A stretch of 39,256 nucleotides of DNA from Halostagnicola sp. A-GB9-2 (GTDB lineage Archaea; Halobacteriota; Halobacteria; Halobacteriales; Natrialbaceae). A program made the translations under genes and the position numbers. The notes under the pieces are model-generated. The model had not been told where the DNA came from and ran no database searches. It saw nothing but the letters and a program-made list of their open reading frames with translations. The stretch is from the NCBI RefSeq assembly GCF_030068615.1, contig NZ_JASJOC010000020.1, forward strand, positions 1 through 39,256, given 5' to 3'. Each line of letters opens with the position of its first letter. The stretch's first letter is position 1. This document shows, piece after piece, positions 8,846 to 20,510 of the stretch.

Positions 8846-9121
8846 ATGTCAGTGGAAACGGATTCGCACGGGCGGGTGTACCTGTCCTCAGAACTGAGGC
8901 AGAAGTATGGCGAGAGGTTTCACGTGGTTGAATACGAGGATCGCCTCGAACTCATCCCTATCGACGAAAACCCTCTTCAGGCGATTCGTGAAGCTTCCGG
9001 TGACGCATTTGAGGGTGAGGCGATAGAAGAGCTCCGTGAAGAAGCGAAAGAGCAGGCCAAAAAAGATGCTGAAGCGGGATTCGATCGAGGGAAACGCGCG
9101 GTGGAGGATAGCGAGGAATGA
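8846..9121 (+). CDS. AbrB/VapB-like antitoxin
   Basis: The product has 91 residues from the ATG at 8846. Residues 1-40 read as a swapped-hairpin AbrB fold: SVETDSHGRVYLSSELRQKYGERFHVVEYEDRLELIPI, quoted in part here, i.e. 'D..GRv.lp.elr...G' followed by the second hairpin. The remainder is a long charged helix (EELREEAKEQAKKDAEAGFDRGKRA), as expected for the toxin-wrapping tail of an antitoxin. It overlaps the next gene by four bases (ATGA, 9118-9121), so the two are translationally coupled. VapB proteins bind their own promoter, and the TATA region at 8817 is the obvious site. Confidence 0.8.
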   Translation: MSVETDSHGRVYLSSELRQKYGERFHVVEYEDRLELIPIDENPLQAIREASGDAFEGEAIEELREEAKEQAKKDAEAGFDRGKRAVEDSEE

Positions 9122-9504
9122 CTGCGTACGTCGAGACAGACTATCTCCTCGCCCTTGCCAAAGACACTGACTGGCTAAAAGATCGAGCAGAGGAAGAGTT
9201 AGAAGAGCACGACGTCGTCACCTCCACGTATTCATATTTAGAGCTTCTGCTCATCAGCGAGCGCCACGAGTTCGACTACATCAAGCTGTTCTCGAATATG
9301 CTTGAGATCGTCCCCGTTGAGACCGATGAAGAACGCCAGATCGTACTCAAGGCTGTGAATTATTTCGAGGACGGAATGACCGCGTTCGATTCCTTCCATG
9401 CTGCTACTGCCGAAAATCGCGGCCATCCCATTTTGAGCTCTGACAAAGCATACGAAGATGTCGATCCCGAGCGTCTTCCGTTGGAGCCGACCGAGAACGC
9501 GTAA
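9118..9504 (+). CDS. PIN-domain ribonuclease, VapC-like toxin
   Basis: The product has 128 residues. The four acidic residues of a PIN active site can be picked out: Asp8 (ETDYLLALAKD), Glu42 (SYLELLL), Asp91 (TAFDSFHAATA) and Asp109 (ILSSDKAYEDV). This is the metal-dependent RNase fold used by VapC toxins, which cut tRNA or rRNA. The start overlaps the antitoxin stop (ATGA). The 3' end lies 23 bases before an orphan IS200/IS605-type end, which suggests the pair belongs to mobile sequence. Haloarchaeal VapBC pairs are frequent in such islands. Confidence 0.82.
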   Translation: MTAYVETDYLLALAKDTDWLKDRAEEELEEHDVVTSTYSYLELLLISERHEFDYIKLFSNMLEIVPVETDEERQIVLKAVNYFEDGMTAFDSFHAATAENRGHPILSSDKAYEDVDPERLPLEPTENA

Positions 9505-9526
9505 CCCACAATATCTCAACCGCGGT

Positions 9527-9611
9527 CGGGAATCCTCGTCCTCGAAAACGCTTCGCGTTTTCGGGTGCAACGAGACGCTTTGCGTCTCGTCATGCCGCTG
9601 AAGCGTGAGGA
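9527..9611 (-). mobile_element. Orphan IS200/IS605-type right end (omegaRNA-like hairpins)
   Basis: Read on the minus strand it contains CTTCAGCGGCATG, then two triloop hairpins (ACGAGACGC/GCGTCTCGT and GAAAACGC/GCGTTTTC) and ends GAGGACGAGGAT. The same order and near-identical text occurs on the plus strand at 21040-21114. In haloarchaea this layout follows tnpB genes, where it gives the 3' (omegaRNA) part of the element. No tnpB is present at this spot, so it is a solo end or a non-autonomous derivative. It sits just behind the VapC-like gene in convergent orientation. Confidence 0.5.
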
Positions 9612-9834
9612 GGATGTCAACAATCGAAACGGAGGACGGACTCCAGTGCGATCGCTCGTACAACTCGAGGACGATATCGAGCTTCATCGCAGCCCGGTGT
9701 GACGACGAACCCCAGTCTACTCTCGGAGTATCCAACGCTAATTATGTGAGCATTTTGAACTTCCATTGCAGTACTGACGGAGACCGTCCCAATTATGAAC
9801 AGTCGTCTCACTCGAGGGCCGGGCCGCACAGCCG

Positions 9835-9920
9835 CCAAGGCGACAGCGCAAAAAATTACAGTGCCCTGCCCCACCTTCGCGCGAAAATATCCAGTTGATG
9901 CAGATGAAACAGAGGTGGAA
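9835..9920 (+). repeat. Repeat R1, copy A
   Basis: It starts CCAAGGCGACAGCGCAAAA, continues TTACAGTGCC, and later has CCAGTTGATG...GAAACAGAGGTGG. A second copy (12139-12225) has the same order with a one-base difference in the A run. Both copies lie 45-70 bases upstream of an AT-rich cargo gene on the same strand, so they occupy the same position relative to the cargo. Similarity is strongest in the first 35 bases. It may carry upstream promoter or recombination signals. Confidence 0.65.
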
Positions 9921-9965
9921 TACTCCAAAGAAAGAAATATGAATTGTCTTTAATAATCTCTTGAC

Positions 9966-10457
9966 ATGCTTCCAGATACTGTAATTGGTGCACTTATTGG
10001 TGGTGGATTCGCAGTTATGGGTTCTGCAGTAACCTCTTATTTTAGCCTAATAACTTCAAGAGAACAAATTCAAGCACAAAATGAACTAGCAATAGGGAAA
10101 ATGCACTTAGAAAAGAGGTTAGATGAAATAGAGAATCTCCGTGAAGCACTACATAGAGGACTGTTCATCATTTACTTCTATGATCATTACGGCGAGCATT
10201 TTATGGAAAGTAGTGAATTCCGGAAGGAATTCCGGCAGGTATCCGAAAGGGTAGCAAAAAATAGAGTTTTTGTTGATCCTGCCACTAACAGGTTGGCTTC
10301 CAGCGCTGTCGCTGAATTGGAAGATGCCGTTAATACATTAACTAATTCAGAAGAAGAAGAGATAGATACAGAGGAACTCTACTCAACAGTGAAGACAGTT
10401 GAGGATCATCTCTCGAAAGAGGTCCGAAAACCAATTGAGGAAATTCGAGAGGATTGA
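9966..10457 (+). CDS. Membrane-anchored coiled-coil protein, cargo A
   Basis: The product has 163 residues. One transmembrane segment lies at residues 5-28 (VIGALIGGGFAVMGSAVTSYFSLI), followed by a long charged helix (ITSREQIQAQNELAIGK...EKRLDEIENLREAL) and an acidic helical tail with EEEEIDTEELYSTV. The cytosolic part looks like an alpha-helical coiled coil. Base composition is clearly AT-richer than the flanking chromosome, as expected for recent transfer. It sits alone between repeats R1 and R2, the same position that a different gene pair holds in the second module. No family is recognised; single-helix coiled-coil proteins of this size are common among accessory and defence genes, but a function cannot be assigned. 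Confidence 0.7.
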   Translation: MLPDTVIGALIGGGFAVMGSAVTSYFSLITSREQIQAQNELAIGKMHLEKRLDEIENLREALHRGLFIIYFYDHYGEHFMESSEFRKEFRQVSERVAKNRVFVDPATNRLASSAVAELEDAVNTLTNSEEEEIDTEELYSTVKTVEDHLSKEVRKPIEEIRED

Positions 10458-10530
10458 GAATAACTCTCTTTGAGTCCTCGCACATCATTAATGGATTCGA
10501 ACGCAAATCACTATCCCGTTTCCTGACCTG

Positions 10531-10755
10531 TTCCCCTTGGGGATGCATGTCGACAAATCTAGCTTCCCCGATATGCACACGAATGAGGACTGATCGTGTG
10601 CATAACTGGAATTTACTATAAAAATACCCATAGTGTGTCTTTACTCCATCTTTCACATGGAGTGAAGACTAGATCATTGCGAGATAGCACGATCTATAGA
10701 ATCCGTGTTCACCAACAGGTAATTGCGTCCTGAGTAGATAGCTGGAGCAAAGATT
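10531..10755 (+). repeat. Repeat R2, copy A
   Basis: About 225 bases match 13321-13545 without any gap at a constant offset of 2790 bases; by eye roughly four bases in five agree and several blocks are identical (ATATGCACACGAATGAG, TTTCACATGG, AGATCATTGCGA, CCGTGTTCACCAACAGG). It contains inverted repeats: ATGCACACGA/TCGTGTGCAT (10573-10582/10594-10603) and ACTCCAT/ATGGAGT around CTTTCAC. The copy begins 73 bases after the stop of cargo A. Confidence 0.8.
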
Positions 10756-10851
10756 CCCGCCAGTTGTCAATAATAGGATTTCTTTATTTAGAAGCGTGCT
10801 GACACTGAAACGGGTTGTTCGGTAAGTACACCTGCGAACTGACCGAAATAC

Positions 10852-10858
10852 CTTTATG
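10852..10858 (+). promoter_or_regulatory. TATA box of the HTH/PemK pair
   Basis: CTTTATG, preceded by a purine-rich BRE-like GAAATAC, lies 28-34 bases before the ATG at 10886. The spacing supports that start over the in-frame one at 10856. Confidence 0.5.
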
Positions 10859-10885
10859 ACACAGTCGACTACATTTGGGTACACT

Positions 10886-11299
10886 ATGCCGGTGCTCCTC
10901 GAAGACCACGATCCCGAACTTACCCTTCGGCCAGAAACGACGAAGTCAGATATCGTGGCGTATCTATACCAGAATCCCGAGTGGGGATACTCCCCGCAGG
11001 ACCTGAAGGAAGCCCTCGATATCCCTCGAGGGACCGCGACAACCACACTCAAACGCCTCTATGACGACGGCTACATCGGAAAAACCGACGACGGCTACTA
11101 TCACGCGCTGAGCGACCGGGAAGACATTCGACGGTATGTCTCTAGCCTCGATCAAGTACACCGATTGTTCGGTCACCACCGTGATTCGGACGCGACACCC
11201 GAAGAACCCGAGAAACAAATCGGAGAGGGCCGTTCTGATGAGGAACTCGATGCAGAACTCGCAGAACTGGAAGACGGTCTAGAAGAGGTAGATGAGTAA
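10886..11299 (+). CDS. Winged-helix protein, probable antitoxin of the PemK/MazF-like pair
   Basis: The product has 137 residues from the ATG at 10886. Residues 15-85 form a MarR-like winged helix: TKSDIVAYLYQNPEWGYSPQDLKEALDIPRGTATTTLKRLYDDGYIGKT, quoted in part, then a wing ending DDGYYHALS. The C-terminal 45 residues are strongly acidic (DEELDAELAELEDGLEEVDE), the character of an antitoxin arm that can cap a basic toxin. It overlaps the next gene by eight bases, so both come from one mRNA. Neighbour content (toxin fold) is the main reason for calling it an antitoxin; a stand-alone repressor is the alternative. The region between R2 and the phiH1-like remnant appears to be the site of insertion of this pair. 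Confidence 0.7.
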   Translation: MPVLLEDHDPELTLRPETTKSDIVAYLYQNPEWGYSPQDLKEALDIPRGTATTTLKRLYDDGYIGKTDDGYYHALSDREDIRRYVSSLDQVHRLFGHHRDSDATPEEPEKQIGEGRSDEELDAELAELEDGLEEVDE

Positions 11300-11633
11300 A
11301 CTATCTGCAGGAGATGTTTGCTGGGCACAAGACCCAACAGATGCCCATCCCCAGAGACCGATTGTCGTCTTATCTCACGATACGCACCCGTTCAGTGCCA
11401 CTGATTGTACCGTGATGTGTATCGGGACAAGCGCCGGAAAATATCAGCAAACCACTCCTGAGCTCAGAGACGAACACCTCAACGGCATCTCCTTCAACAA
11501 CACGTCGTACCTGATGCCATGGGCACTATATACGATCGCACCAGGGTCAATTATGAACGGAAAGACAAAAGGCGAACTTACAGAAGATGGACGCAGACTG
11601 GTGAAAAAGTCACTCATTTCTCTCATCCCGTAA
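11292..11633 (+). CDS. PemK/MazF-like toxin
   Basis: The product has 113 residues. It begins like MazF/PemK proteins, with SAGDVCWAQDPTDAHPQRPIVVLSHD (a 'GDv.w.......RP.vvls' pattern), a second strand block TDCTVMCIGTS, and SYLMPWALYTIAPGSI where MazF has the strand leading into the second active-site loop. The fold is an SH3-like barrel acting as an mRNA endonuclease in the cytosol. Residues needed for cleavage are not certain from sequence alone. The eight-base overlap with an acidic winged-helix protein gives a normal antitoxin-toxin order. This is one of two toxin-antitoxin-type pairs in the island, along with the VapBC-like pair at 8846-9504. Confidence 0.7.
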   Translation: MSKLSAGDVCWAQDPTDAHPQRPIVVLSHDTHPFSATDCTVMCIGTSAGKYQQTTPELRDEHLNGISFNNTSYLMPWALYTIAPGSIMNGKTKGELTEDGRRLVKKSLISLIP

Positions 11634-11763
11634 CTGGTAGACAATGGAAGCGGCACAGTCTAATTGAACCAGCCTGGGAAGTGAGCGAGTTGTAGTGATG
11701 TGAGTTAGGCACTGAGTGATGCGTGCACCACCAATACTGAACGCGAGTGTCACGCTCCACTCT

Positions 11764-11781
11764 GAATACGGAACCGTATTC
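11764..11781. promoter_or_regulatory. Near-perfect palindrome GAATACGG-AA-CCGTATTC
   Basis: An 8-bp inverted repeat with a two-base centre ends 10 bases before the stop codon of the minus-strand phiH1-like gene. It could be an operator or a short terminator hairpin. It lies downstream of both convergent genes, which makes a terminator role more likely. Confidence 0.4.
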
Positions 11782-11791
11782 CCTACTACTG

Positions 11792-11998
11792 TTATTCGGG
11801 ATCTTCAACTGGCTCGAGTGCGCCCGCATCAAGTTCCTCATTAAGAAAGGCCTCCCCGTCGTCAGTAATTCGATAGAGGCCTTGGGCAACACGCTCGACA
11901 AGCCCATAAGTAGCCATCTTCGAGAGACGATTGCTTGCGTAGTTGGCGACTGTAACGTCCAGTTGCTCGAGACTCGGGCAGTACGGCAGGATTCGACC
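11792..11998 (-). pseudogene. PhiH1-repressor-like winged-helix gene, 5'-truncated
   Basis: The last 67 codons before the stop at 11792 match the intact gene at 13547-13843: VTVANYASNRLSKMATYGLVERVAQGLYRITDDGEAFLNEELDAG, quoted in part, i.e. the recognition helix, wing and EELDA tail. The first part is degraded (GRILPYCPSLEQLD where intact relatives have DERIL...). The frame continues upstream to 12142 but only through unrelated Ser/Thr/Arg sequence, with no ATG. Intact relatives are about 90-100 residue DNA-binding proteins of the kind found in phage phiH1 and many haloarchaeal islands. Its place in the first module matches that of the intact gene in the second module. Confidence 0.65.
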
Positions 11999-12138
11999 AC
12001 GGGGACGGAGTGTGAGTGAGGCGACTCGAGGCGTCTTGGAGAGGGTGTTGTGGGTGGAAACGTCAGTGGTTGGGTGTGTCGAACAGGTGGGGGTAGCTAA
12101 GGACGAGACAACTCGATCGTTCCGCTTCCGCACTGTCA

Positions 12139-12225
12139 CCAAGGCGACAGCGCAAAAAAATTACAGCGCCCCCGCACAACCTCCGCACAGCAGATTTCCA
12201 GTTGAAACAGTCGAAACAGTGGTGG
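12139..12225 (+). repeat. Repeat R1, copy B
   Basis: It repeats CCAAGGCGACAGCGCAAAA, TTACAGCGCC, CCAGTTGAAACAGTC and GTGG of copy A (9835-9920), in the same order and orientation. It ends about 65 bases upstream of cargo B. Confidence 0.65.
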
Positions 12226-12260
12226 CGTATCAACTGTGGCGACAAATGAATGGAAGATAA

Positions 12261-12265
12261 CTTTA
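12261..12265 (+). promoter_or_regulatory. TATA box of cargo B
   Basis: CTTTA lies 26-30 bases before the ATG at 12291, consistent with a leaderless transcript. Confidence 0.4.
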
Positions 12266-12290
12266 GGCTGCTCTATTTGTTTGATAGTAT

Positions 12291-12983
12291 ATGGTTGATC
12301 CAGATTTCGGACCAATTCATCTGGGTAATCCAAGGACCGAATACGTCGCTTGGATTGACTTGATGGGAACTGGTGCGATTATGGAATGGTCTCAAGACAC
12401 GGCTACGACAAATATTGGAAAACTTCAGGTGATTATGGGTGAATGTTCTGAGCCATATGATCTGGAATTATATCCCATGATGGATGGCTGTTATGCGATA
12501 TCTGACAGCGAAAGCGACATTCTACAATTCACTTCCGACGTGTTTGAAAGGACATCTGAAATAATTGTCAATAGGTATCTAGGTCGAGATGCCCCTCCTG
12601 CATATTTTTCACCCGTCATCCGTGGTGGAATAGCAAAAGGTGATGTGTACCATGGAAGTGATATCAACGGGTCCGACCTTGATGATCATCCTATTCAAGA
12701 TTCAATTCTGATAGGACGTGCTGTAGCCCGTGCTCATTCTTGTGAGAGTGACGCAGCTCCTTTCAGTTGTATCGTTCATCCGACTGGTTGGCAGAAGGAT
12801 GATTTTGGCCGATTAGAGTGGTGTGCTGACAAGTATCATGCGCAGCACTTAGTGGATGCACTTAACACATATTTTGATTATTATTCTGGCAAAGAAGATG
12901 TTAATTATCCAAAGAAGAAAATTAGGAAGCATAGAGAGATGGCAGCAGGTGCCCTTCTGAGAGAGGAATCGGTCAGCGATTGA
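12291..12983 (+). CDS. Class III nucleotidyl cyclase-like domain protein, cargo B
   Basis: The product has 230 residues. Several landmarks of the class III adenylate/guanylate cyclase fold occur in order: TEYVAWIDLMGTG with Asp23 (first metal aspartate position), YPMMDGCYAISDS with Asp65 (second), SPVIRGGIAKGDVYHG (residues 108-123; the 'R.gi..G.v..G' block) and SILIGRAVARAHSCES (the 'G..v..A..l..' helix). A single-domain protein of this size resembles the cyclase half of phage-defence signalling systems such as Pycsar. No sensor domain or membrane segment is present. The gene is AT-rich and followed by a small acidic protein, but no obvious nucleotide-binding effector. A cyclase-fold protein without catalysis remains possible. 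Confidence 0.5.
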   Translation: MVDPDFGPIHLGNPRTEYVAWIDLMGTGAIMEWSQDTATTNIGKLQVIMGECSEPYDLELYPMMDGCYAISDSESDILQFTSDVFERTSEIIVNRYLGRDAPPAYFSPVIRGGIAKGDVYHGSDINGSDLDDHPIQDSILIGRAVARAHSCESDAAPFSCIVHPTGWQKDDFGRLEWCADKYHAQHLVDALNTYFDYYSGKEDVNYPKKKIRKHREMAAGALLREESVSD

Positions 12984-13021
12984 ATCTGCTTTCCTCAAAA
13001 GAGGATATTGCAAGTAGAGGA

Positions 13022-13028
13022 TTTATAC
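13022..13028 (+). promoter_or_regulatory. TATA box inside the cyclase-like/cargo junction
   Basis: TTTATAC lies 24-30 bases before the ATG at 13052, giving the small downstream gene its own leaderless promoter. It argues against the TTG at 12980 as its start. Confidence 0.5.
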
Positions 13029-13051
13029 CGAAGATCATCACACATCGTCAT

Positions 13052-13315
13052 ATGAATGTATCTGAACTAACTAATACAGATCTTACGCTAGCCAAATTAA
13101 CAATCGAAATTGATGAATTAGAATCGGGTGACCCCTCGGATTCAGGATGGATCTCTTACCACGAAGATGAAGGTGTAATAGCTATTTCTGAATATGAAGT
13201 GATAGAGAGACAGCCGGGAATTGGTCATGGGGGCTATGAGTTTAAGGGATTAATTGAACAGTTTGATGAAGAAGAAGTACTCCAAGAAGCCGAGAAACGG
13301 TCTATAGATGTTTAG
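13052..13315 (+). CDS. Small acidic protein of unknown function, cargo B partner
   Basis: The product has 87 residues from the ATG at 13052. It has no membrane segment and no recognised domain. The visible pattern is two short beta-type segments (DLTLAKLTIEIDELESG; GVIAISEYEVIERQPG) followed by an acidic helix (EQFDEEEVLQEAEKRS). It lies 68 bases after the cyclase-like gene and probably belongs to the same cargo; repeat R2 copy B begins six bases after its stop. Its own TATA box suggests it can be expressed independently. An immunity or effector role for the cyclase-like protein would be guesswork. Confidence 0.6.
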   Translation: MNVSELTNTDLTLAKLTIEIDELESGDPSDSGWISYHEDEGVIAISEYEVIERQPGIGHGGYEFKGLIEQFDEEEVLQEAEKRSIDV

Positions 13316-13320
13316 GTCCC

Positions 13321-13545
13321 CCCCCCTTGGGGTCACACCCTGACAAAATCAGTTCCACATATATGCACACGAATGAGCACTGATCGTGTGTATAACTGAA
13401 ATCTACTATACAAACACTCATAGCGTGGATATTCCCCATCTTTCACATGGATTGATAACTAGATCATTGCGATATAACGTGAGACATAGAGTCCGTGTTC
13501 ACCAACAGGCAACTGCGTCCTGAGTAGGTAGCCAGAGCAGAGATC
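13321..13545 (+). repeat. Repeat R2, copy B
   Basis: This is the ungapped counterpart of 10531-10755 (offset 2790). It keeps the ATGCACACGA half of the inverted repeat and has one change in the other half (TCGTGTGTAT). It runs from just after cargo B to the base before the stop codon of the intact phiH1-like gene. Confidence 0.8.
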
Positions 13546-13546
13546 C

Positions 13547-13843
13547 TTATTCGTTATCTCCAACTGGCTCGAGTTCCTTCGCATCGAGTTCTTCATCGAG
13601 GAAGGCGCGCCCGTTCTCGTTAAGTCGATAAAGCCCCTGTGCGATTCGGTCGACTAACCCGTAGTTGTTCAGCTTCGAAAGACGGACGCTGGCATGGCTC
13701 CGGGAGCAGACCCCGAAGTTGTCCACAGCCTGCGGGGTGAGATTTCCTTCATCGCGCATTGTCTCCATGATGCGTTCGTCGACTGGACGCATCCAGTCTG
13801 CACGTTGTCGTACCACATCTACAGTGGTTGGATTAGGAGGCAT
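13547..13843 (-). CDS. PhiH1-repressor-like winged-helix DNA-binding protein
   Basis: The product has 98 residues from the ATG at 13843. The layout is a short N-terminal arm with RADWMRPVDERIMETMRDEGNLTPQAV, quoted in part, a recognition helix SRSHASVRLSKLNNYGLV, a wing (DRIAQGLYRLNENG) and the tail RAFLDEELDAKEL. This is the small haloarchaeal winged-helix family that includes the phage phiH1 repressor. It is convergent with the cargo B genes, with R2 between them. The matching but truncated gene in the first module (11792-11998) shows the two modules share this third component. It likely represses its own promoter or that of an island gene. Confidence 0.75.
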   Translation of the reverse strand: MPPNPTTVDVVRQRADWMRPVDERIMETMRDEGNLTPQAVDNFGVCSRSHASVRLSKLNNYGLVDRIAQGLYRLNENGRAFLDEELDAKELEPVGDNE

Positions 13844-14041
13844 AGGTCTACCGATACGTCCGAAAGCGAGGTTCTATCGTTTTAATCTGATTGTGCATCG
13901 TTATCTTCTGATAGTAAATCGTTAGGAAGCTATTTATGAGACGACCCTCTATGCTCAGTTGACCCACCCTTTCGGATTCAAAGGTCCGACGTGTCTCTAG
14001 CACGCCGGGGTCGGGTCATCCTCTACACGAGGTTTCCGACC

Positions 14042-14311
14042 ATGAGAAACGAACGCTCGAGAGGCAATGAATATTGTCCCATAGACGACAGTACAGCCGG
14101 CCAGTCGACTGGCCTCGAGAACACCACACAGAACCCACGCCACACTGCACCCGAAGGCAGTACACAACCTTCTCACAGATCCGAACAGTTCCCTGCAAAG
14201 ACACCAAAACACCACACCACCACCCGCTACGACGAGATCATCGTCGCGGACGACGACGCGATTCTTTTCGAACTCGAGTCAGACCCCGCACCAGGTGATC
14301 CCGATGCATAA
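14042..14311 (+). CDS. Small hydrophilic protein, first gene of the RuvC/coiled-coil operon
   Basis: The product has 89 residues from the ATG at 14042; upstream in-frame starts exist at 13991. It is rich in Thr, Ser, Pro and His for the first 60 residues and likely disordered, then ends in an ordered acidic segment RYDEIIVADDDAILFELESDP. No domain is recognised. Its last eight bases overlap the ATG of the RuvC-type gene (14304), implying translational coupling. It takes the place where the N-terminal half of a TnpB would be encoded, but shows no resemblance to that half. Confidence 0.55.
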   Translation: MRNERSRGNEYCPIDDSTAGQSTGLENTTQNPRHTAPEGSTQPSHRSEQFPAKTPKHHTTTRYDEIIVADDDAILFELESDPAPGDPDA

Positions 14312-15002
14312 CGCCGACCGAACCGCGATCGGCGTCGACCTCGGCGAATACAATCTCTACACCGCGTCTCCGGTGAAAATGCCGGACTCGAGCGGTGCCC
14401 ACACGATCTGCGGCGAGGAGATCTGCGCTCGCCTCGACGAGCTTCGCGACCGAGTTACTGCACTACTCTACGAGGGAGCGGACCGCGAGACGATCGTCGC
14501 GTCCGTAACGCGCCGTCGCGACGGGCTGCTCGAGGAAATCGACGCGGCCGCGCGGGAGATCTGCGAGTACGCGAACGCGTACGACCGACCCGTGCTGGTC
14601 ACCGAGGACAGCCACTACCAGCCGGACCTGTGGACGTGGCTGACGGCTCCAAACGCCCACCGAGGAACGGCGTGGCTGCTCCCGACGGCCCACCTGCGCC
14701 TTCGAGCGGTTGCCGACGAGTGCGGCCTCGAGGTCGCGACGGTCCCCGAAGCGTACTCCTCCCAGGAGTGTCACGCCTGCGGCGTCATCGGCGACCGACC
14801 GGACGGCGAGACGTTCCGCTGTACCAACCCGCACTGCCACGTCGAGACGCTCTGTGCGGATTACAACGCCGCGAAGGTCCTCGCACGGCGGTACTACCCC
14901 GGTCGACGGTGTGCGTACCGACCTCCGCATTCGGTCTCGAGGGGAGAGCCTCCCACGCTCGTCGCTGAGCGGCGGTCCCAACGGCTGCAACGGCCGCCAT
15001 AG
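14304..15002 (+). CDS. TnpB-like RuvC nuclease with zinc ribbon, lacking the N-terminal half
   Basis: The product has 232 residues from the ATG at 14304. The RuvC pieces come in TnpB order: RuvC-I with Asp12 (IGVDLGEYN), RuvC-II with Glu101 (RPVLVTEDSHY), then a four-Cys zinc ribbon (Cys156/Cys159 in SSQECHACG, Cys173/Cys178 in FRCTNPHC), and RuvC-III with Asp186 (CADYNAAKVLARRY). So the nuclease triad and zinc ligands all appear intact. A full TnpB has about 400 residues and begins with about 190 residues of RNA- and DNA-binding wedge/REC domains; none of that is here. There is no adjacent IS end or tnpA. It is followed at 95 bases by a coiled-coil protein. A remnant transposon gene is an alternative, but the clean ends and overlap with gene 1 favour a domesticated protein. 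Confidence 0.72.
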   Translation: MHNADRTAIGVDLGEYNLYTASPVKMPDSSGAHTICGEEICARLDELRDRVTALLYEGADRETIVASVTRRRDGLLEEIDAAAREICEYANAYDRPVLVTEDSHYQPDLWTWLTAPNAHRGTAWLLPTAHLRLRAVADECGLEVATVPEAYSSQECHACGVIGDRPDGETFRCTNPHCHVETLCADYNAAKVLARRYYPGRRCAYRPPHSVSRGEPPTLVAERRSQRLQRPP

Positions 15003-15096
15003 GAGCGGTCGCCCGCCTCCTGTCCCCGACCGGTCGTCTGCCCACCGAGCGCCAGCTGTATCGGCTTGCCAACCACCCCATTCCAACCCCGACGAC

Positions 15097-16035
15097 ATGA
15101 ACACGAATTCCCAACGCTCCGAATCGAACGCATCGAGCATCAACTCGCTGGCTGCCGAACTCGAGTCGCTTCGCGAACGGATCGCCACGCTCGAGTCCGG
15201 CGTCGAACGAAAGAACGAGCGTCTCGACCGCCTCGAGACCGAACTCGAACGCGCCCGGACGGAAAACGACCGCCTCGAAAGCGAATTCGAACGCACCCGC
15301 GAAGCAAACGAACGTCTCGAGGCCCGCGTCGACGAACTCGAGGACGGACGACCGCCGATCGAGGCGCGACTGGACGCCCACGAAAAGAAACTCGAGGCGA
15401 ACAAAGGTCGCGTCGGCGAGCTTCAGGCCCGCGAACTCGAGAAGGGAGCGCATCTGCTCGAGGAGAACGTCGACGAAAGCGGGATCGACGTCTCCGATGA
15501 CCGCCTCGAGCGGATCAGTAAGGACGACGGCAGGCGGTACTTCCGACTCCCCGAGAGCGACGACCCGCTCGAGCGCGGCGGGGATGTCGCGCTGGCACAC
15601 GCCGATCTGCTCCCGATCCAGCAACTCGCGAAGATGGACGACGACATGCTTCACGCGACGACGTCATCACTGCCCTCGCGGCTCGCCGCGAAGCTCTGGA
15701 AGGCACGCACCGATCCCGGAGTCGGCGACAACCCGTGGCAGAACGGAAGTGCAGACATCCGCGAGTACGTCACGGCGAGCGATATGAAACACTGGATTCG
15801 CCGGCAAGAGACGGGAATCAGCGACGACTACGCGAAGAAGCTCGTTTCCAGAACGATCGACGCGTTACTCGATCTGTCGAAGAACCGGCTCGCGATCAAA
15901 CGGAAACGCCAGCGCAAGAACGGGCTCGAGTACACCGAACGCCGCGTTCTGCTGACGGCGGATGCAGATATCCCCGGCGACGGAACAGGACCGGCTGCAG
16001 AGCACACCCCGGTGACAGGTGACGTCGACGGGTAA
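15097..16035 (+). CDS. Coiled-coil protein with C-terminal helical, possibly DNA-binding region
   Basis: The product has 312 residues from the ATG at 15097; the frame is open far upstream (14710) through the RuvC gene, but that part reads as a shadow. Residues 20-125 are a long heptad-type coiled coil (SLAAELESLRERIATLES, then RLDRLETELERARTENDRLE). Residues 150-300 are globular, with YFRLPES, GGDVALAHADLLPIQQL, and a helix-rich section DMKHWIRRQETGISDDYAKKLVSRTIDAL that may be a winged helix, followed by the very basic KRKRQRKNG. No family name is known to me. It shares strand and probably mRNA with the RuvC-type gene and its small leader gene, so it is the natural partner of that nuclease. 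Confidence 0.7.
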   Translation: MNTNSQRSESNASSINSLAAELESLRERIATLESGVERKNERLDRLETELERARTENDRLESEFERTREANERLEARVDELEDGRPPIEARLDAHEKKLEANKGRVGELQARELEKGAHLLEENVDESGIDVSDDRLERISKDDGRRYFRLPESDDPLERGGDVALAHADLLPIQQLAKMDDDMLHATTSSLPSRLAAKLWKARTDPGVGDNPWQNGSADIREYVTASDMKHWIRRQETGISDDYAKKLVSRTIDALLDLSKNRLAIKRKRQRKNGLEYTERRVLLTADADIPGDGTGPAAEHTPVTGDVDG

Positions 16036-16324
16036 GGCCGTCCCCGGTGTTTCTAACCTCCCTGAGAAGGGGTTCGCTCTCTACGGATACCACAAATGCC
16101 GCACGCTCGTGGATGATCGCGCGTCTCGGTACTCGTGTGTCCGTCGCTCGATCGGTCGTCGTCGGTCCCAAGCCGGTGACGGACTGGGAGCTGTCACTGA
16201 AGACGTCAGGTGTCACCGGAACTATCGTAGCCGCTCACACTTGGTTCGGGTTGTTCCAATGCCACAACGTACGTAGTTTGAGTAGCTGGCGGGGGAATAA
16301 CAGTTACTGAGCGCTCAAACGGGT
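16036..16324. other. 289-base spacer, no gene seen
   Basis: The spacer between the coiled-coil gene and the YeeE pair holds one repeat (16215-16238) also found near 20934. No other feature is evident. Confidence 0.5.
16215..16238 (+). repeat. Dispersed 24-base motif, copy 1
   Basis: ACCGGAACTATCGTAGCCGC is followed by TCAC-type bases. It matches 20934-20957 (ACCGGTACTATCGTAGCCAC) at 21 of the 24 positions. It may mark ends of a mobile element. Confidence 0.45.
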
Positions 16325-16786
16325 TCAGTCAGCGCTCGTCGGCGTGGTTTCCGAGGCGGTGCGCTGGCTGCGCCAGTAGCCCTGCAGGTAGGCCCCGACG
16401 AACATTCCAGCGAGCGCCCACAGGATCGTGACGTTGCCAACACCGAGGCTGGCGTAGGCCGCCCCGGGACAGATCCCCGACAGACCCCAGCCGACGCCGA
16501 AGATTGCGCCGCCGATCAGGACGTTGCGGTCGAAGGATTTCAGCCGCCGGCCGTAGGTGTCGCCGGTTAGCGGCGCGCGGTCGAACAGTCGCGGCACCAG
16601 CCCGAAGGCGATGCCGGTGATAACTGCCGCACCGCCCATGACGAACAGCAGCCCAAAGTCCTCGAACTGCAGGAAGTTCAGTACGACTTCGGGACGAGCC
16701 ATGTGGCTAAAGCCGAGACCGAAACCGAAGATCAGGCCGCCGACGAAGATCAGCGGCATGAACAGGGGATGTCGGCTCTGGCTCAT
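16325..16786 (-). CDS. YeeE/YedE-family membrane protein, second half-transporter
   Basis: The product has 153 residues from the ATG at 16786. Four hydrophobic segments are readable (LFMPLIFVGGLIFGFGLGF; GLLFVMGGAAVITGIAFGLV; NVLIGGAIFGVGWGLSGICPG; VTILWALAGMFVGAYLQGY). The conserved SGICPG cysteine motif of the YeeE/YedE (DUF6691) family lies near residue 105. Full-length bacterial YeeE transports thiosulfate; in archaea the protein is often split into two genes, as here. It overlaps the upstream half by four bases (ATGA), so the two form an obligatory pair in the membrane. It is co-directional with the rhodanese-MBL gene. Confidence 0.85.
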   Translation of the reverse strand: MSQSRHPLFMPLIFVGGLIFGFGLGFSHMARPEVVLNFLQFEDFGLLFVMGGAAVITGIAFGLVPRLFDRAPLTGDTYGRRLKSFDRNVLIGGAIFGVGWGLSGICPGAAYASLGVGNVTILWALAGMFVGAYLQGYWRSQRTASETTPTSAD

Positions 16787-17340
16787 GGTGATACCCCCAG
16801 TGCCATCACGACCTGTGCCGTCCCGATCGCCACGATCAGGAACGTGATCACGCCCACGATCGACGTTTTCGAGGCCGATCCAACGCCACAGACGCCGTGG
16901 CCAGAGGTACACCCCTTGCCGATCCGGGTGCCGATCCCGACGAGGATGCCGCCGAGGAACAGTCGCCACGGCTGGACGTCCGTCAACCAAACCGTGAATC
17001 CGCCGATATCGTGCAACTGGCCGGTCGTCCCTGCTTCGTAGAGGCCGCTCGAGACCAGTCCAGACTGAAACGTCAGCGCGTAGACTGCCGCGCCGGAAAT
17101 AATCCCGAGCGTGAAGACGATCCGCCAGTCGCGCGAGCCCCGGTACTGCTGAAACCGCGACTGGTCCGAGACGTAGGAAAGCGTCGACTCGAGGAACGTG
17201 CTCGCGCCGGCCGAAATCGCGGTGCCGAGGTAGATGACGACGGCGCCGAGGCCGACGAGCAGTCCCCCGACGGCGTACCGACTGATCCCGTTCGGGAACA
17301 GCGACTCGTACAGTGCGGGTGCGAAGAGTTCAGTTACCAT
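16783..17340 (-). CDS. YeeE/YedE-family membrane protein, first half-transporter
   Basis: The product has 185 residues. It has about five hydrophobic segments and the family's signature GKGCTSGHGVCGVGSAS near residues 139-155, with two cysteines that in bacterial YeeE relay the sulfur of thiosulfate across the membrane. It is the partner of the 16325-16786 protein. It begins 20 bases after the stop of the rhodanese-MBL gene, so the three genes probably make one minus-strand operon (17361-18602, then 16783-17340, then 16325-16786). The role inferred is uptake of thiosulfate or a related sulfur species for the persulfide chemistry next door. Confidence 0.85.
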   Translation of the reverse strand: MVTELFAPALYESLFPNGISRYAVGGLLVGLGAVVIYLGTAISAGASTFLESTLSYVSDQSRFQQYRGSRDWRIVFTLGIISGAAVYALTFQSGLVSSGLYEAGTTGQLHDIGGFTVWLTDVQPWRLFLGGILVGIGTRIGKGCTSGHGVCGVGSASKTSIVGVITFLIVAIGTAQVVMALGVSP

Positions 17341-17360
17341 TCGACTGGAAAGTGGTGGGG

Positions 17361-18602
17361 TTAGTCACCGGCCAGCGATTCCTGGCTGGCGGCGCAGTTG
17401 TTCGGACCGAGCTCGAGTTCGAACGCTTCCTCGTCGTCAACGTCCCGCTGGCCGAGGTTCGTCGCGATAATGTCCTCGTAGTTGGGCGGACGGGGCGGCA
17501 TGTCCGAGAGGATTAGTTCGACGAACTCGGCTTTCTCCATCGTCAGGGCAGCCATGTCCTCCGTGAGTTGGCCGATTCGTGCAGTGTAGGTGCCATCGTC
17601 GGCGGGCGCGGCCGAGTCGCTGAAGTGGGCCCCGCCGATCAGGGTGTCGTCGGGTAAGGTAAGAACGCGATCCTGGAGCGACTCGTAGAGTTGCTTGGCG
17701 GCGTCTTCGGCGCCCTCGTCCCCCTCCTCTAAGTCGGGGCGAGCGACGCTCTCGACGAACAGTCCGTCGCCGGTCGCGAGTAACTCGCCGTCGATCAGGT
17801 ACGAGGTCATCCCGGACGTGTGACCGGGCGTGTAAACCGTCTCGATCGTGGCGTCACCGACCTGGAATTCGTCGCCGTCCTCCGCGCGGGTCACCTCGTC
17901 GTCGTAGGTGACTCCGCGGTCGACGGCAGTCGCAGGGATGATGCCTTCGACGCCCTTCTCGGCGAGGGTTCGAACACCCGAGATGTGATCCGCGTGGACG
18001 TGTGTGTCGATCGCGTATTTCAGCTCGACATCGAGACCCTTCGCATCCTGCTGGGATTGCGAAGCAGGGCTCGCAGAACGTCGTTCTGCGGCGTCCTCGA
18101 GATAGCGGTCGGTGAACGCGCGCAGTGGGTCGATCACGGCCGCCTCGTCGCCGTCGACGATTAGGTAGCCGAGACAGCCAGAGGAGGGACGCTGGTACTG
18201 GTAAAGCGTCCCGCTTCCGTCGTAGCGCTCAACCTCGACGGCCTCGTAGATTCGCGCCCACCCGTTCATCCCGTCCTCGAGGTGGTTCACGTCGTAGCCG
18301 CGTTCCTTGAGCGAGCCGGCGACGAACTCGCTGGCACCGCCTTTCGCACAGAGGACCGTGACTTCGCGATCGTCCGGTATCTGTGCAAGAATATCGTCGT
18401 CGACCTCCTCGTCGAGGAAGTTGAAGTACGGGACGTTAATCGACTCAACGGTCCCGCCGTTGATTTTCCACTCATTGTAATCCGACTCCATTCGAGCGTC
18501 GAGGAGTGTGACGTCCTCGCTCGCATCGATACGTCCTTTTAATTCGGCCGGCGTCACCGATTCGATGTCCACGTCCGGCGTTGGAAAGTCCATGTCGTTC
18601 AT
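17361..18602 (-). CDS. Rhodanese-metallo-beta-lactamase fusion, persulfide dioxygenase-like
   Basis: The product has 413 residues from the ATG at 18602 (18593 is also possible). Residues 14-125 form a rhodanese domain with active-site Cys85 in VTVLCAKGGAS. Residues 130-380 form a metallo-beta-lactamase domain with THVHADHISG (His201, His203, Asp205, His206), YTPGHTSGM and GDGLFVESVARPDL, the iron site of ETHE1-type persulfide dioxygenases. The likely job is oxidising glutathione- or low-molecular-weight thiol persulfide and handing sulfur on in the cytosol. Residues 173-188 (ERRSASPASQSQQDAK) interrupt a normally short linker and coincide with a perfect DNA hairpin, so they look like an in-frame insertion. 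A TATA-like CCTTAAG lies near 18633-18640. Confidence 0.85.
   Translation of the reverse strand: MNDMDFPTPDVDIESVTPAELKGRIDASEDVTLLDARMESDYNEWKINGGTVESINVPYFNFLDEEVDDDILAQIPDDREVTVLCAKGGASEFVAGSLKERGYDVNHLEDGMNGWARIYEAVEVERYDGSGTLYQYQRPSSGCLGYLIVDGDEAAVIDPLRAFTDRYLEDAAERRSASPASQSQQDAKGLDVELKYAIDTHVHADHISGVRTLAEKGVEGIIPATAVDRGVTYDDEVTRAEDGDEFQVGDATIETVYTPGHTSGMTSYLIDGELLATGDGLFVESVARPDLEEGDEGAEDAAKQLYESLQDRVLTLPDDTLIGGAHFSDSAAPADDGTYTARIGQLTEDMAALTMEKAEFVELILSDMPPRPPNYEDIIATNLGQRDVDDEEAFELELGPNNCAASQESLAGD
18072..18090. repeat. Perfect 8-bp triloop palindrome inside the rhodanese-MBL gene
   Basis: CGCAGAAC-GTC-GTTCTGCG lies within the coding sequence and encodes part of the extra ERRSA segment. 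It has the same build (8-bp stem, three-base loop) as the hairpins at 8438-8626, 9527-9611 and 21040-21114. Confidence 0.6.
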
Positions 18603-18662
18603 GTTGTACACTGCCCAGTACTGGGTACGGCCACTTAAGGATTTGTGTAGTAGTTCCATATT

Positions 18663-18672
18663 CATACAATAT
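18663..18672. promoter_or_regulatory. CATACAATAT motif, minus-strand arm
   Basis: Read from the rhodanese-MBL gene it is ATATTGTATG, 61-70 bases upstream of the ATG at 18602. It matches the motif ahead of tusA (18806-18815) in the same orientation relative to its gene, so it is a candidate operator shared by both divergent arms. Confidence 0.5.
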
Positions 18673-18805
18673 GGCATTCAAAGATATCTGGTTATACTCT
18701 GTTATTGGCCCACATAACTGCCTCTAGACGCATCTGTGAAGTCAGGGTAACTACTGGATGTTTGTATGTGGCACAATAATCGACATCCTTTTATTGGTGG
18801 CCCCA

Positions 18806-18815
18806 ATATTGTATG
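18806..18815 (+). promoter_or_regulatory. ATATTGTATG motif ahead of tusA
   Basis: It lies 32-41 bases before the tusA ATG at 18847, close to the TATA position. The ten bases are identical to the motif on the opposite arm. It is probably an operator or part of the promoter. Confidence 0.5.
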
Positions 18816-18846
18816 ATAGCTCCAATACAGAGCACAAAGATCAATT

Positions 18847-19092
18847 ATGAGTTCAGAATACGATATCACGGACACGCTCGACGTGAAAGGACAGTCCTGC
18901 CCGATGCCTATCGTCAAGACCAAACAGGCAATCGACGACCTCACAGCTGGCGACGTGCTGGAAGTCGTGGCGACTGATTCAGGCAGCATAAGTGACATTC
19001 AGGGCTGGGCGGATGGTACCGACGGGGTCGAACTCCTCGAGCAAGTCGAGGATGGCGACCGCTACACACACTACGTCAAGAAGGCGGCATAA
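18847..19092 (+). CDS. tusA: TusA-family sulfur carrier
   Basis: The product has 81 residues, the usual size. The signature CPMPIVKTKQAI with Cys18 is present, after the strand YDITDTLDVKGQSC, and the tail reads DRYTHYVKKA. TusA proteins carry sulfur as a persulfide on that cysteine and pass it to DsrE or to tRNA thiolation and molybdenum cofactor enzymes. The next gene, a DsrE-like protein, starts one base after the stop codon, so the two are co-translated partners. The divergent arm encodes the rhodanese and YeeE proteins. The gene name reflects the family; which acceptor it serves cannot be told. Confidence 0.88.
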   Translation: MSSEYDITDTLDVKGQSCPMPIVKTKQAIDDLTAGDVLEVVATDSGSISDIQGWADGTDGVELLEQVEDGDRYTHYVKKAA

Positions 19093-19093
19093 C

Positions 19094-19690
19094 ATGAGTG
19101 CGGATACTCCCGCGACGTCGGCCGATGACAGCGAAGTCGAACCCGAGACCGACGCCGCCGAACTACAGGCGCTCCGTAAGCGCGTCGACGAACTCGAGCA
19201 GTCGCTGGCCGACTTGGACGACGGCGACGGACCGAAGAAGATGACCATCGTCGCCACCCAGGGGAGCTTCGACATGGCGTACCCGCCGCTGATCCTCGCG
19301 AGCACAGCGGCCGCCTTCGGGTGGGACGTCGTCGTCTTCCACACGTTCTGGGGGCTCGACATCCTCCACGAGGAAAAATCGGAGAACCTCAAGCTGAGCG
19401 CCGTCGGCAACCCGAATATGCCGGTACCGAACGCGCTCGCTGCGTTCCCCGGCATGGATCGGATGGCCACGCGCATGATGGAAAAGAAAATCGACGAAAA
19501 CGGGACCGCGACGATCGAGGAACTGATCGACCTCTCGCTCGAGCAGGGCGTCGATCTGCAGGCCTGCCAGATGACGGTCGAGTTGATGGACTACGACGAG
19601 GACGACTTCTACGACGGCGTTACCACCGGCGTCGGCGCAGCAACCGCGCTCCAGCACATGGCCGAGTCGGACATCCAGCTCCTGGTATAG
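19094..19690 (+). CDS. DsrE/DsrF/DrsH-like family protein
   Basis: The product has 198 residues from the ATG at 19094; the frame opens further upstream (18992) inside tusA as a shadow. Residues 1-50 are an acidic coiled coil (AAELQALRKRVDELEQSLADL). Residues 50-198 are the DsrE-like fold: KKMTIVATQGSFDMAYPPLILASTAAAFGWDVVVFHTFWGLDIL, quoted in part, and the conserved Cys region VDLQACQMTVELMDY, then GVGAATALQHMAESDIQLLV. This large cytosolic form, common beside tusA in archaea and sulfur oxidisers, relays persulfide with TusA. It ends the plus-strand arm of the cluster; no terminator is evident, though a T-rich stretch follows at 19770. Confidence 0.85.
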   Translation: MSADTPATSADDSEVEPETDAAELQALRKRVDELEQSLADLDDGDGPKKMTIVATQGSFDMAYPPLILASTAAAFGWDVVVFHTFWGLDILHEEKSENLKLSAVGNPNMPVPNALAAFPGMDRMATRMMEKKIDENGTATIEELIDLSLEQGVDLQACQMTVELMDYDEDDFYDGVTTGVGAATALQHMAESDIQLLV

Positions 19691-19880
19691 ACCCGTTGTG
19701 CATCGAGTCTAGTCACGTGCATTCAACCAATTATCAGTACAGAAGACTAACAGACTAGTGCAAGCCAAAATATATTTGTTCTTACCAAAATCTGTGCAAC
19801 ATAGAGGCTGTATTCAGCACTTCAATATAGGGCAGCGGTTGAATCACAAGGACGGCGCTTGCACACACATTAACCGGCTC

Positions 19881-20330
19881 TCAATCGTCGCGTCGGTGTG
19901 GCCGAGCAGAACGTGATTCTCGCTGTGATGCGGTGAGCAAGCCGACCACCATTCCGAATGTAGTGCCACTCAGCATCCCCAACGCCTTCCGTTTTGAGAT
20001 ACGACCAGTCAGTCCCGCGTGCAATACCATGATGGTGTCGGCCGTATCTACCAGCAGACCAATACGCTGCCACTGCCGCTGATGGGCGGGTGGGGCAGTG
20101 AGTTCCCCAATCCCAAGTGCGAAAGCCCGGATACACGCATAGCGAATTGCAACCTCGTTTGGCCCATCGCCCTCGAGACCAAAAATGCCATACAACCGGC
20201 CTAACAACCGTGGAGCCAGTAATCCGAGACCTCCAAAAAGGATCCTGAACCAGGGTAGTGTCACTTGCAGCCGCTGCGTTATCGAATCCTGCGATTGAGC
20301 GTTTACGTCCTGTCGATCTGTGTCGCTCAT
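19881..20330 (-). CDS. Small membrane protein, DUF4267-like
   Basis: The product has 149 residues. Three to four hydrophobic segments are seen (WFRILFGGLGLLAPRLLGRLYGIFG; IRAFALGIGELTA; IGLLVDTADTIMVLHAGLTG; KALGMLSGTTFGMVVGLLTA). The spacing of the Gly-rich 'GLG.l..P...gR..G' block and the later 'D..d...h' block resembles the DUF4267 family, a group without known function. Its N-terminus is hydrophilic and it has no signal peptide. It is convergent with the DsrE-like gene but 190 bases away, so probably not part of the sulfur cluster. Confidence 0.6.
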   Translation of the reverse strand: MSDTDRQDVNAQSQDSITQRLQVTLPWFRILFGGLGLLAPRLLGRLYGIFGLEGDGPNEVAIRYACIRAFALGIGELTAPPAHQRQWQRIGLLVDTADTIMVLHAGLTGRISKRKALGMLSGTTFGMVVGLLTASQRESRSARPHRRDD

Positions 20331-20510
20331 CGGTCATTACTGAGAAAAGTGTAATATTACAATAATCTATCGCTTCCACACAGGATTTAACTTGTTTAAT
20401 GAATTTTCCTCGTGTGTTACATTCGCGCTATAGATCTTGCACAATGGCATGAGAATCATATAGTTTGGAAAGAAGGTCCTTTGGCTTATTATCAGACTAT
20501 AGATAGTTAT
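20331..20510. other. Unannotated spacer beside the IS6 relic
   Basis: AT-rich bases following the relic. The open frame here is a continuation of the dead transposase and no gene is supported. Confidence 0.4.

What the first reader, a model, noticed from the sequence alone, without database searches (positions are those of the whole stretch)
14042..16035. RuvC-only TnpB-like nuclease with intact active site paired with a coiled-coil protein
The 232-residue protein keeps Asp12, Glu101, Asp186 and four zinc-ribbon cysteines but lacks the RNA/DNA-binding N-terminal half of TnpB. It overlaps a small gene upstream and is followed by a 312-residue coiled-coil protein with a basic C-terminus. No IS end, tnpA or omegaRNA-like structure flanks it. 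Known TnpB relatives, including RNA-guided repressors, keep the N-terminal half or lose catalysis; the reverse state is unusual. Perhaps the coiled-coil protein supplies target recognition.
Basis: partly seen in the sequence, partly recalled or inferred. Interest (0 to 1): 0.75.

Follow-up and report, generated by a model that had tools for sequence, protein, structure and literature searches.

The report
TnpB nuclease half without guide-reading half
In one family of salt-loving archaea the DNA-cutting half of an RNA-guided nuclease (TnpB) survives as its own intact, conserved protein without the half that reads the guide RNA, usually carried beside a coiled-coil winged-helix protein in a dispersed genetic element, so something other than a TnpB-type guide RNA probably tells it where to cut.

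Summary
The observation largely holds. The 232-aa protein (NUC, 14304-15002) begins where the TnpB RuvC domain begins, and D12, E101, D186 and four zinc cysteines are invariant in 32 relatives. It is no local 5' deletion: it is a monophyletic family under purifying selection, found only in Natrialbaceae. The coiled-coil/winged-helix protein (CC) follows it in 24 of 35 loci; most exceptions form one clade beside gas-vesicle genes, seven of whose members remain intact.

Two corrections. The unit has conserved ends (similarity starts at ~13323 and stops at ~16222). CC is not a dedicated partner: it is multi-copy across Halobacteriales, mostly without NUC, and is followed by its own 213-bp repeat site.

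The helices that hold omegaRNA in TnpB have lost half their basic residues, and no conserved omegaRNA-like block follows NUC, so TnpB-style guidance is probably lost. A second RuvC-only family sits beside Cas7/Cas5-like genes in HRAMP-like loci.

Best reading: a guide-RNA-independent RuvC nuclease carried in the payload slot of a CC element and directed by protein partners or DNA structure. Catalysis and physical contact are inferred, not shown.

The parts
13323..13410 (.). Left end (LE) of the module: CCTTGGGGT...TATGCACACGA-N-TCGTGTGTATA palindrome
   Evidence: Similarity to loci with unrelated flanks starts here; LE profile matches about 40 loci, E down to 1e-24
13547..13843 (-). Divergent winged-helix-like regulator (98 aa)
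   Evidence: Recurrent neighbour in 44 loci, with NUC or with other payload; Pfam matches weak only
14042..14311 (+). Leader ORF (UP, 89 aa), stop overlaps NUC start by 8 bp
   Evidence: Overlapping upstream ORF recurs with variable body; fused in frame to NUC in L071 and, in part, L053, L055, L057, L058
14304..15002 (+). NUC: RuvC-only TnpB-like protein, 232 aa, D12/E101/D186, zinc Cys 156/159/173/178
15097..16035 (+). CC: coiled-coil plus winged-helix-like protein, 312 aa; its last codons overlap the left repeat arm
16009..16026 (.). Left arm of inverted repeat, CCGGTGACAGGTGACGTC
16153..16167 (.). Tandem direct repeat CGGTC-gtcgt-CGGTC, 10-bp spacing, co-varying between clades
16202..16222 (.). 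Right arm of inverted repeat GACGTCAGGTGTCACCGG and right end (RE) of the module
   Evidence: Similarity to all other loci stops here

Best explanation
NUC is a conserved, probably active DNA nuclease derived from a TnpB/Cas12f-like ancestor by loss of the whole REC lobe (WED and REC), and it no longer uses a TnpB-type guide RNA. It is carried in the payload slot of a ~2.9-kb module with defined ends (LE, divergent winged-helix regulator, leader ORF, NUC, CC, 213-bp repeat site). It is directed to DNA by protein partners or by DNA structure. In the complete module the likeliest director is CC: it would dimerise by its coiled coil, bind the repeats of the 213-bp site with its winged helix, and bring NUC to nick or cut there, helping to mobilise or maintain the element. 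Shown: domain loss, intact motifs, selection, synteny, single-clade pairing, module ends, eroded RNA-binding surface. Inferred: catalysis, loss of RNA guidance, CC binding to the repeats, CC-NUC contact, a role in mobility.
For: NUC aligns to ISDra2 TnpB from residue 184 on; in that protein WED is 1-12 and 117-176, REC 13-116, RuvC 185-326 and 360-375 (PMC10097598). Catalytic and zinc residues invariant; dN/dS medians 0.29 with CC and 0.22 without. The alpha1-alpha2 region (NUC 36-93) has 6.3 K+R and net charge -5.6, against 12.3 and +2.5 in full-length haloarchaeal TnpBs. The NUC-CC gap is the least conserved stretch of the right half, so no omegaRNA-like block follows NUC. CC adjacent in 24/35 loci, one CC clade, correlated distances. 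CC is itself a dispersed repeat: in G133 four 1.34-kb copies, ~90% identical, unique flanks, hairpin right end. Direct repeats co-vary, as expected of protein-bound DNA sites.
Against: CC is mostly found without NUC, so it does not need NUC. Seven NUC genes of the gas-vesicle-locus clade stay intact without CC or the 213-bp site, so NUC does not need CC. No empty site or target duplication was found. No activity or binding data. The 213-bp unit could instead be an RNA: consensus folding is far better than column-shuffled controls (-57 against -20).
Confidence: 0.4

Rival explanations
1. NUC is independent cargo, for example a defence or regulatory nuclease working with its overlapping leader protein under the divergent regulator; CC is only the vehicle that spreads the module.
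For: Regulator and leader overlap persist where CC is lost and NUC there stays intact and selected. NUC and an unrelated protein family (FEYT) occupy the same slot before CC. Leader-NUC fusions occur, and L082 fuses NUC to a ~500-aa extension without CC.
Against: 24/35 adjacency, one CC clade and correlated distances suggest more than carriage. PADLOC shows only generic Cas12 similarity.
Confidence: 0.35
2. NUC is still RNA-guided: another small protein or the 213-bp region transcribed as RNA replaces the lost lobe, as the Cas7/Cas5-like proteins might in the HRAMP-like loci.
For: The 213-bp unit is structured (single-sequence z -2.39; consensus fold). A RuvC-only relative lies beside Csm3/Cmr3-like genes.
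Against: The 213-bp unit follows CC whether or not NUC is present and is absent at CC-less NUC loci. Its direct repeats co-vary as direct, not complementary, copies. RNA-contacting helices lost basic residues. No Rfam match.
Confidence: 0.12
3. NUC is a non-catalytic structural or DNA-binding remnant.
For: No activity data; two copies (L083, L084) are decayed.
Against: All three catalytic acidic residues and four cysteines invariant in 32 sequences down to ~60% identity.
Confidence: 0.1

Closest known systems
TnpB of IS200/IS605 (e.g. ISDra2 TnpB, PMC10097598)
   Same: RuvC DED triad, CCCC zinc TNB domain, spacing and fold
   Different: No WED/REC lobe, eroded RNA-binding helices, no omegaRNA-like 3' block, no tnpA
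TldR nuclease-dead TnpB-like RNA-guided repressors (PMC13418256 names the family)
   Same: TnpB descendants taken out of the transposon
   Different: By general knowledge of the family, TldRs keep the guide-binding half and lose catalysis; NUC is the reverse
HRAMP-associated RuvC-only proteins found here (L205-L212)
   Same: ~210-220 aa, start at RuvC-I, intact motifs, overlap a small upstream gene, share the WLLP motif
   Different: Downstream partner is Cas7/Csm3-like and Cmr3-like instead of CC; sister relation not resolved
Cas12f (type V-F)
   Same: Best structural match of the RuvC half (Z 13.8)
   Different: No REC lobe, no CRISPR array

Membership tests
TnpB (IS200/IS605 RNA-guided nuclease) | RuvC catalytic triad | tested here: met
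   D12, E101, D186 invariant
TnpB (IS200/IS605 RNA-guided nuclease) | CCCC zinc TNB domain | tested here: met
   Pfam PF07282 E 1.7e-11; C156, C159, C173, C178 invariant
TnpB (IS200/IS605 RNA-guided nuclease) | N-terminal WED and REC domains | tested here: not met
   Protein starts at RuvC-I; upstream ORFs have no Pfam match to TnpB domains; model aligns from TnpB residue 184
TnpB (IS200/IS605 RNA-guided nuclease) | omegaRNA at the 3' end of the gene | tested here: inconclusive
   3' region of NUC not conserved, no Rfam match; no transcript data
TnpB (IS200/IS605 RNA-guided nuclease) | Linked tnpA transposase | tested here: not met
   None among the neighbouring ORFs; a TnpA acting in trans is not excluded
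TldR nuclease-dead repressor | Loss of RuvC catalytic residues | tested here: not met
   Triad intact
Type V CRISPR effector (Cas12) | CRISPR array nearby | tested here: not met
   Only coding coiled-coil repeats found at 9000-20500
HRAMP | Adjacent diverged Cas5/Cas7 genes | tested here: not met
   Window neighbours are CC and a regulator; met for the second RuvC-only family
RuvC Holliday junction resolvase | Stand-alone RuvC fold acting on junctions | tested here: inconclusive
   Fold match Z 10.5 (6s16_A), weaker than Cas12f; zinc TNB insertion present; activity not testable

The most novel reading that the evidence does not exclude
A TnpB-derived RuvC half has become a protein-directed nuclease: a coiled-coil winged-helix protein bound to its own repeat site recruits it, and together they run a mobile element not previously described. 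The same nuclease half was recruited a second time beside Cas7/Cas5-like proteins.
Probability: 0.25. Interest if true: 0.82.

Novelty: new variant of a known kind. Interest (0 to 1): 0.62.

Why it matters
Known domestications of TnpB keep the guide-binding half and drop or keep cutting. A conserved family that does the reverse would show that the nuclease half can work without the lobe that reads the guide, which bears on how Cas12-type effectors were assembled and could give a very small nuclease module. It also gives a direct test of what sets the target when the RNA-reading lobe is gone.

Tried and rejected
Simple 5' deletion: rejected, whole clade is short with a clear gap to full-length TnpBs (287 to 114 bits). 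N-terminal half split into the upstream ORF: rejected, no TnpB-like match, upstream ORFs are unrelated to each other. Terminal inverted repeats joining LE and RE: weak resemblance only, RE motif not found at the left. Rfam: nothing. Empty site: none found for L057 or for the G133 copy L222. PDB sequence and fold search for CC: only generic coiled coils and winged helices, no match at E 0.001. Phage records: no CC match; one viral contig, 43% identity. Single-clade origin of both RuvC-only families: left open, tree unresolved.

Full report
What is there. The ORF at 14304-15002 encodes 232 aa (NUC). It overlaps an 89-aa ORF by 8 bp and is followed 94 bp later by a 312-aa protein, CC. Pfam recognises only the Cas12f1-like TNB domain (E 1.7e-11). 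The AF2 model matches Cas12f RuvC plus TNB (Foldseek E 1e-7; Z 13.8 to 8dzj_A, Z 12.2 to TnpB 8exa_A over residues 184-377). In ISDra2 TnpB the WED and REC domains occupy residues 1-176 and RuvC begins at 185 (PMC10097598), so NUC starts at the domain boundary.

A real family, not a deletion. A search of 125 family genomes gave 35 members at 56-76% identity, then a drop to full-length TnpBs at 27-37%. A profile search of 293 genomes of the order found members only in the same family, with scores falling from 287 to 114 bits. NUC is monophyletic (99/98). In 32 relatives D12, E101, D186 and the four zinc cysteines are invariant. Median pairwise dN/dS is 0.29 beside CC and 0.22 without CC. Two copies, L083 and L084, are decayed.

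RNA binding. In TnpB the alpha1 and alpha2 helices of RuvC hold the omegaRNA through basic residues (PMC10097598). The corresponding stretch has on average 6.3 K+R and net charge -5.6 in NUC, against 12.3 and +2.5 in full-length haloarchaeal TnpBs (acidic proteins are usual in haloarchaea, but the comparison is within haloarchaea). DNA conservation is lowest just after NUC (14951-15050), where an omegaRNA would be expected, and Rfam gives nothing.

Context. CC lies downstream in 24 of 35 loci. The 11 exceptions include L081 (an in-frame stop in the search), L082 (NUC fused to a ~500-aa extension) and a clade supported 100/98, most members of which lie beside GvpO and a GvpN-like AAA gene (GvpO E 9.5e-29; map). 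Seven of that clade are intact. G067 has such a NUC and no CC in its genome. NUC-linked CCs fall in one clade, inside which one subclade of 25 has an unrelated protein (FEYT) in the slot of NUC. NUC and CC distances correlate (Mantel r 0.43), though shared species history was not removed.

The module. Between loci with unrelated flanks, similarity starts at ~13323 and stops at ~16222. The left end holds a palindrome, TATGCACACGA...TCGTGTGCATA, about 220 bp left of a divergent winged-helix-like gene. The right end is a 213-bp unit bounded by an 18-bp inverted repeat with nearly constant spacing (arms at 16009-16026 and 16202-16219), present after CC with or without NUC and absent at CC-less NUC loci. 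It contains a tandem direct repeat with 10-bp spacing whose two copies change together (CGGTC, TGGTC, CAGTC, CGGGA; mean 4.74 of 5 matching against 4.22 shuffled; shared ancestry is not corrected for). This favours a protein-bound DNA site, but a structured RNA is not excluded: the consensus fold scores -57 against -20 for column-shuffled alignments and the single sequence z is -2.39.

CC alone moves, or has moved. CC was found in 76 of 293 genomes of the order, often in many copies. In G133, of another family, four copies share ~90% identity over 1.34 kb with unique flanks and end in the hairpin TTCCGGTGACGACACCTGTCACCGGA. No empty site or target duplication was found, so mobility is inferred from dispersal. 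CC has no known catalytic domain: a long helix and a winged-helix-like domain only.

A second RuvC-only family. Ten loci in other haloarchaea encode ~210-220-aa proteins that also start at RuvC-I, with the motif GxWLLP shared with NUC. In seven of ten the gene abuts or overlaps a gene matching Csm3 models (E 2e-4), followed in L206 by one matching Cmr3 (E 2.8e-7). These look like HRAMP, an array-less haloarchaeal CRISPR derivative whose listed nucleases are mostly HNH and PD-(D/E)xK (PMC8730458, PMC12669027). Whether it is sister to NUC is unresolved. The original HRAMP paper is not held, so prior notice of this protein cannot be excluded.

Interpretation. Shown by sequence: loss of the REC lobe, intact motifs, selection, recurrent company, module ends. 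Inferred: that NUC cuts, that it does so without a guide RNA, and that CC or DNA structure sets the place. The intact CC-less clade argues that NUC has a use without CC, so independent cargo is nearly as likely as a CC-directed nuclease; the two readings share the claim that the TnpB-type guide is gone.

Noticed in passing
L205-L212, L214, L215: Second RuvC-only TnpB-like family (~210-220 aa), in seven of ten loci directly before Csm3/Cmr3-like genes (HRAMP-like).
   Followed up: partly
window 10532-10754 and 11791-11971: A second, broken copy of the left end and regulator (80% identical to the first), split by a 1036-bp segment 10755-11790 that carries a MarR-like and a PemK-like gene (10856-11299, 11292-11633; PemK E 2.9e-5). 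The two halves are contiguous in L156.
   Followed up: partly
L220-L223 (G133): CC as a 1.34-kb single-gene dispersed repeat with a perfect hairpin right end, four copies on one chromosome.
   Followed up: partly
window 16009-16219 and homologous sites: 213-bp unit with inverted repeat of constant spacing and co-varying direct repeats; DNA site or RNA undecided; no Rfam family.
   Followed up: partly
L082:5503-7707: NUC fused to a ~500-aa C-terminal extension with a weak C2H2 zinc-finger match, preceded by a 314-aa HTH-like protein, on a plasmid.
   Followed up: partly
L067, L070, L072, L074, L076, L077, L083, L084: NUC without CC beside gvpO and a gvpN-like gene in several species, suggesting one old insertion.
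   Followed up: partly
G000:C4, ~33-71 kb: Several CC copies clustered on one contig of the window's own genome, some with in-frame stops; the similarity past the stop may reflect the repeat arm that overlaps the end of CC.
   Followed up: no
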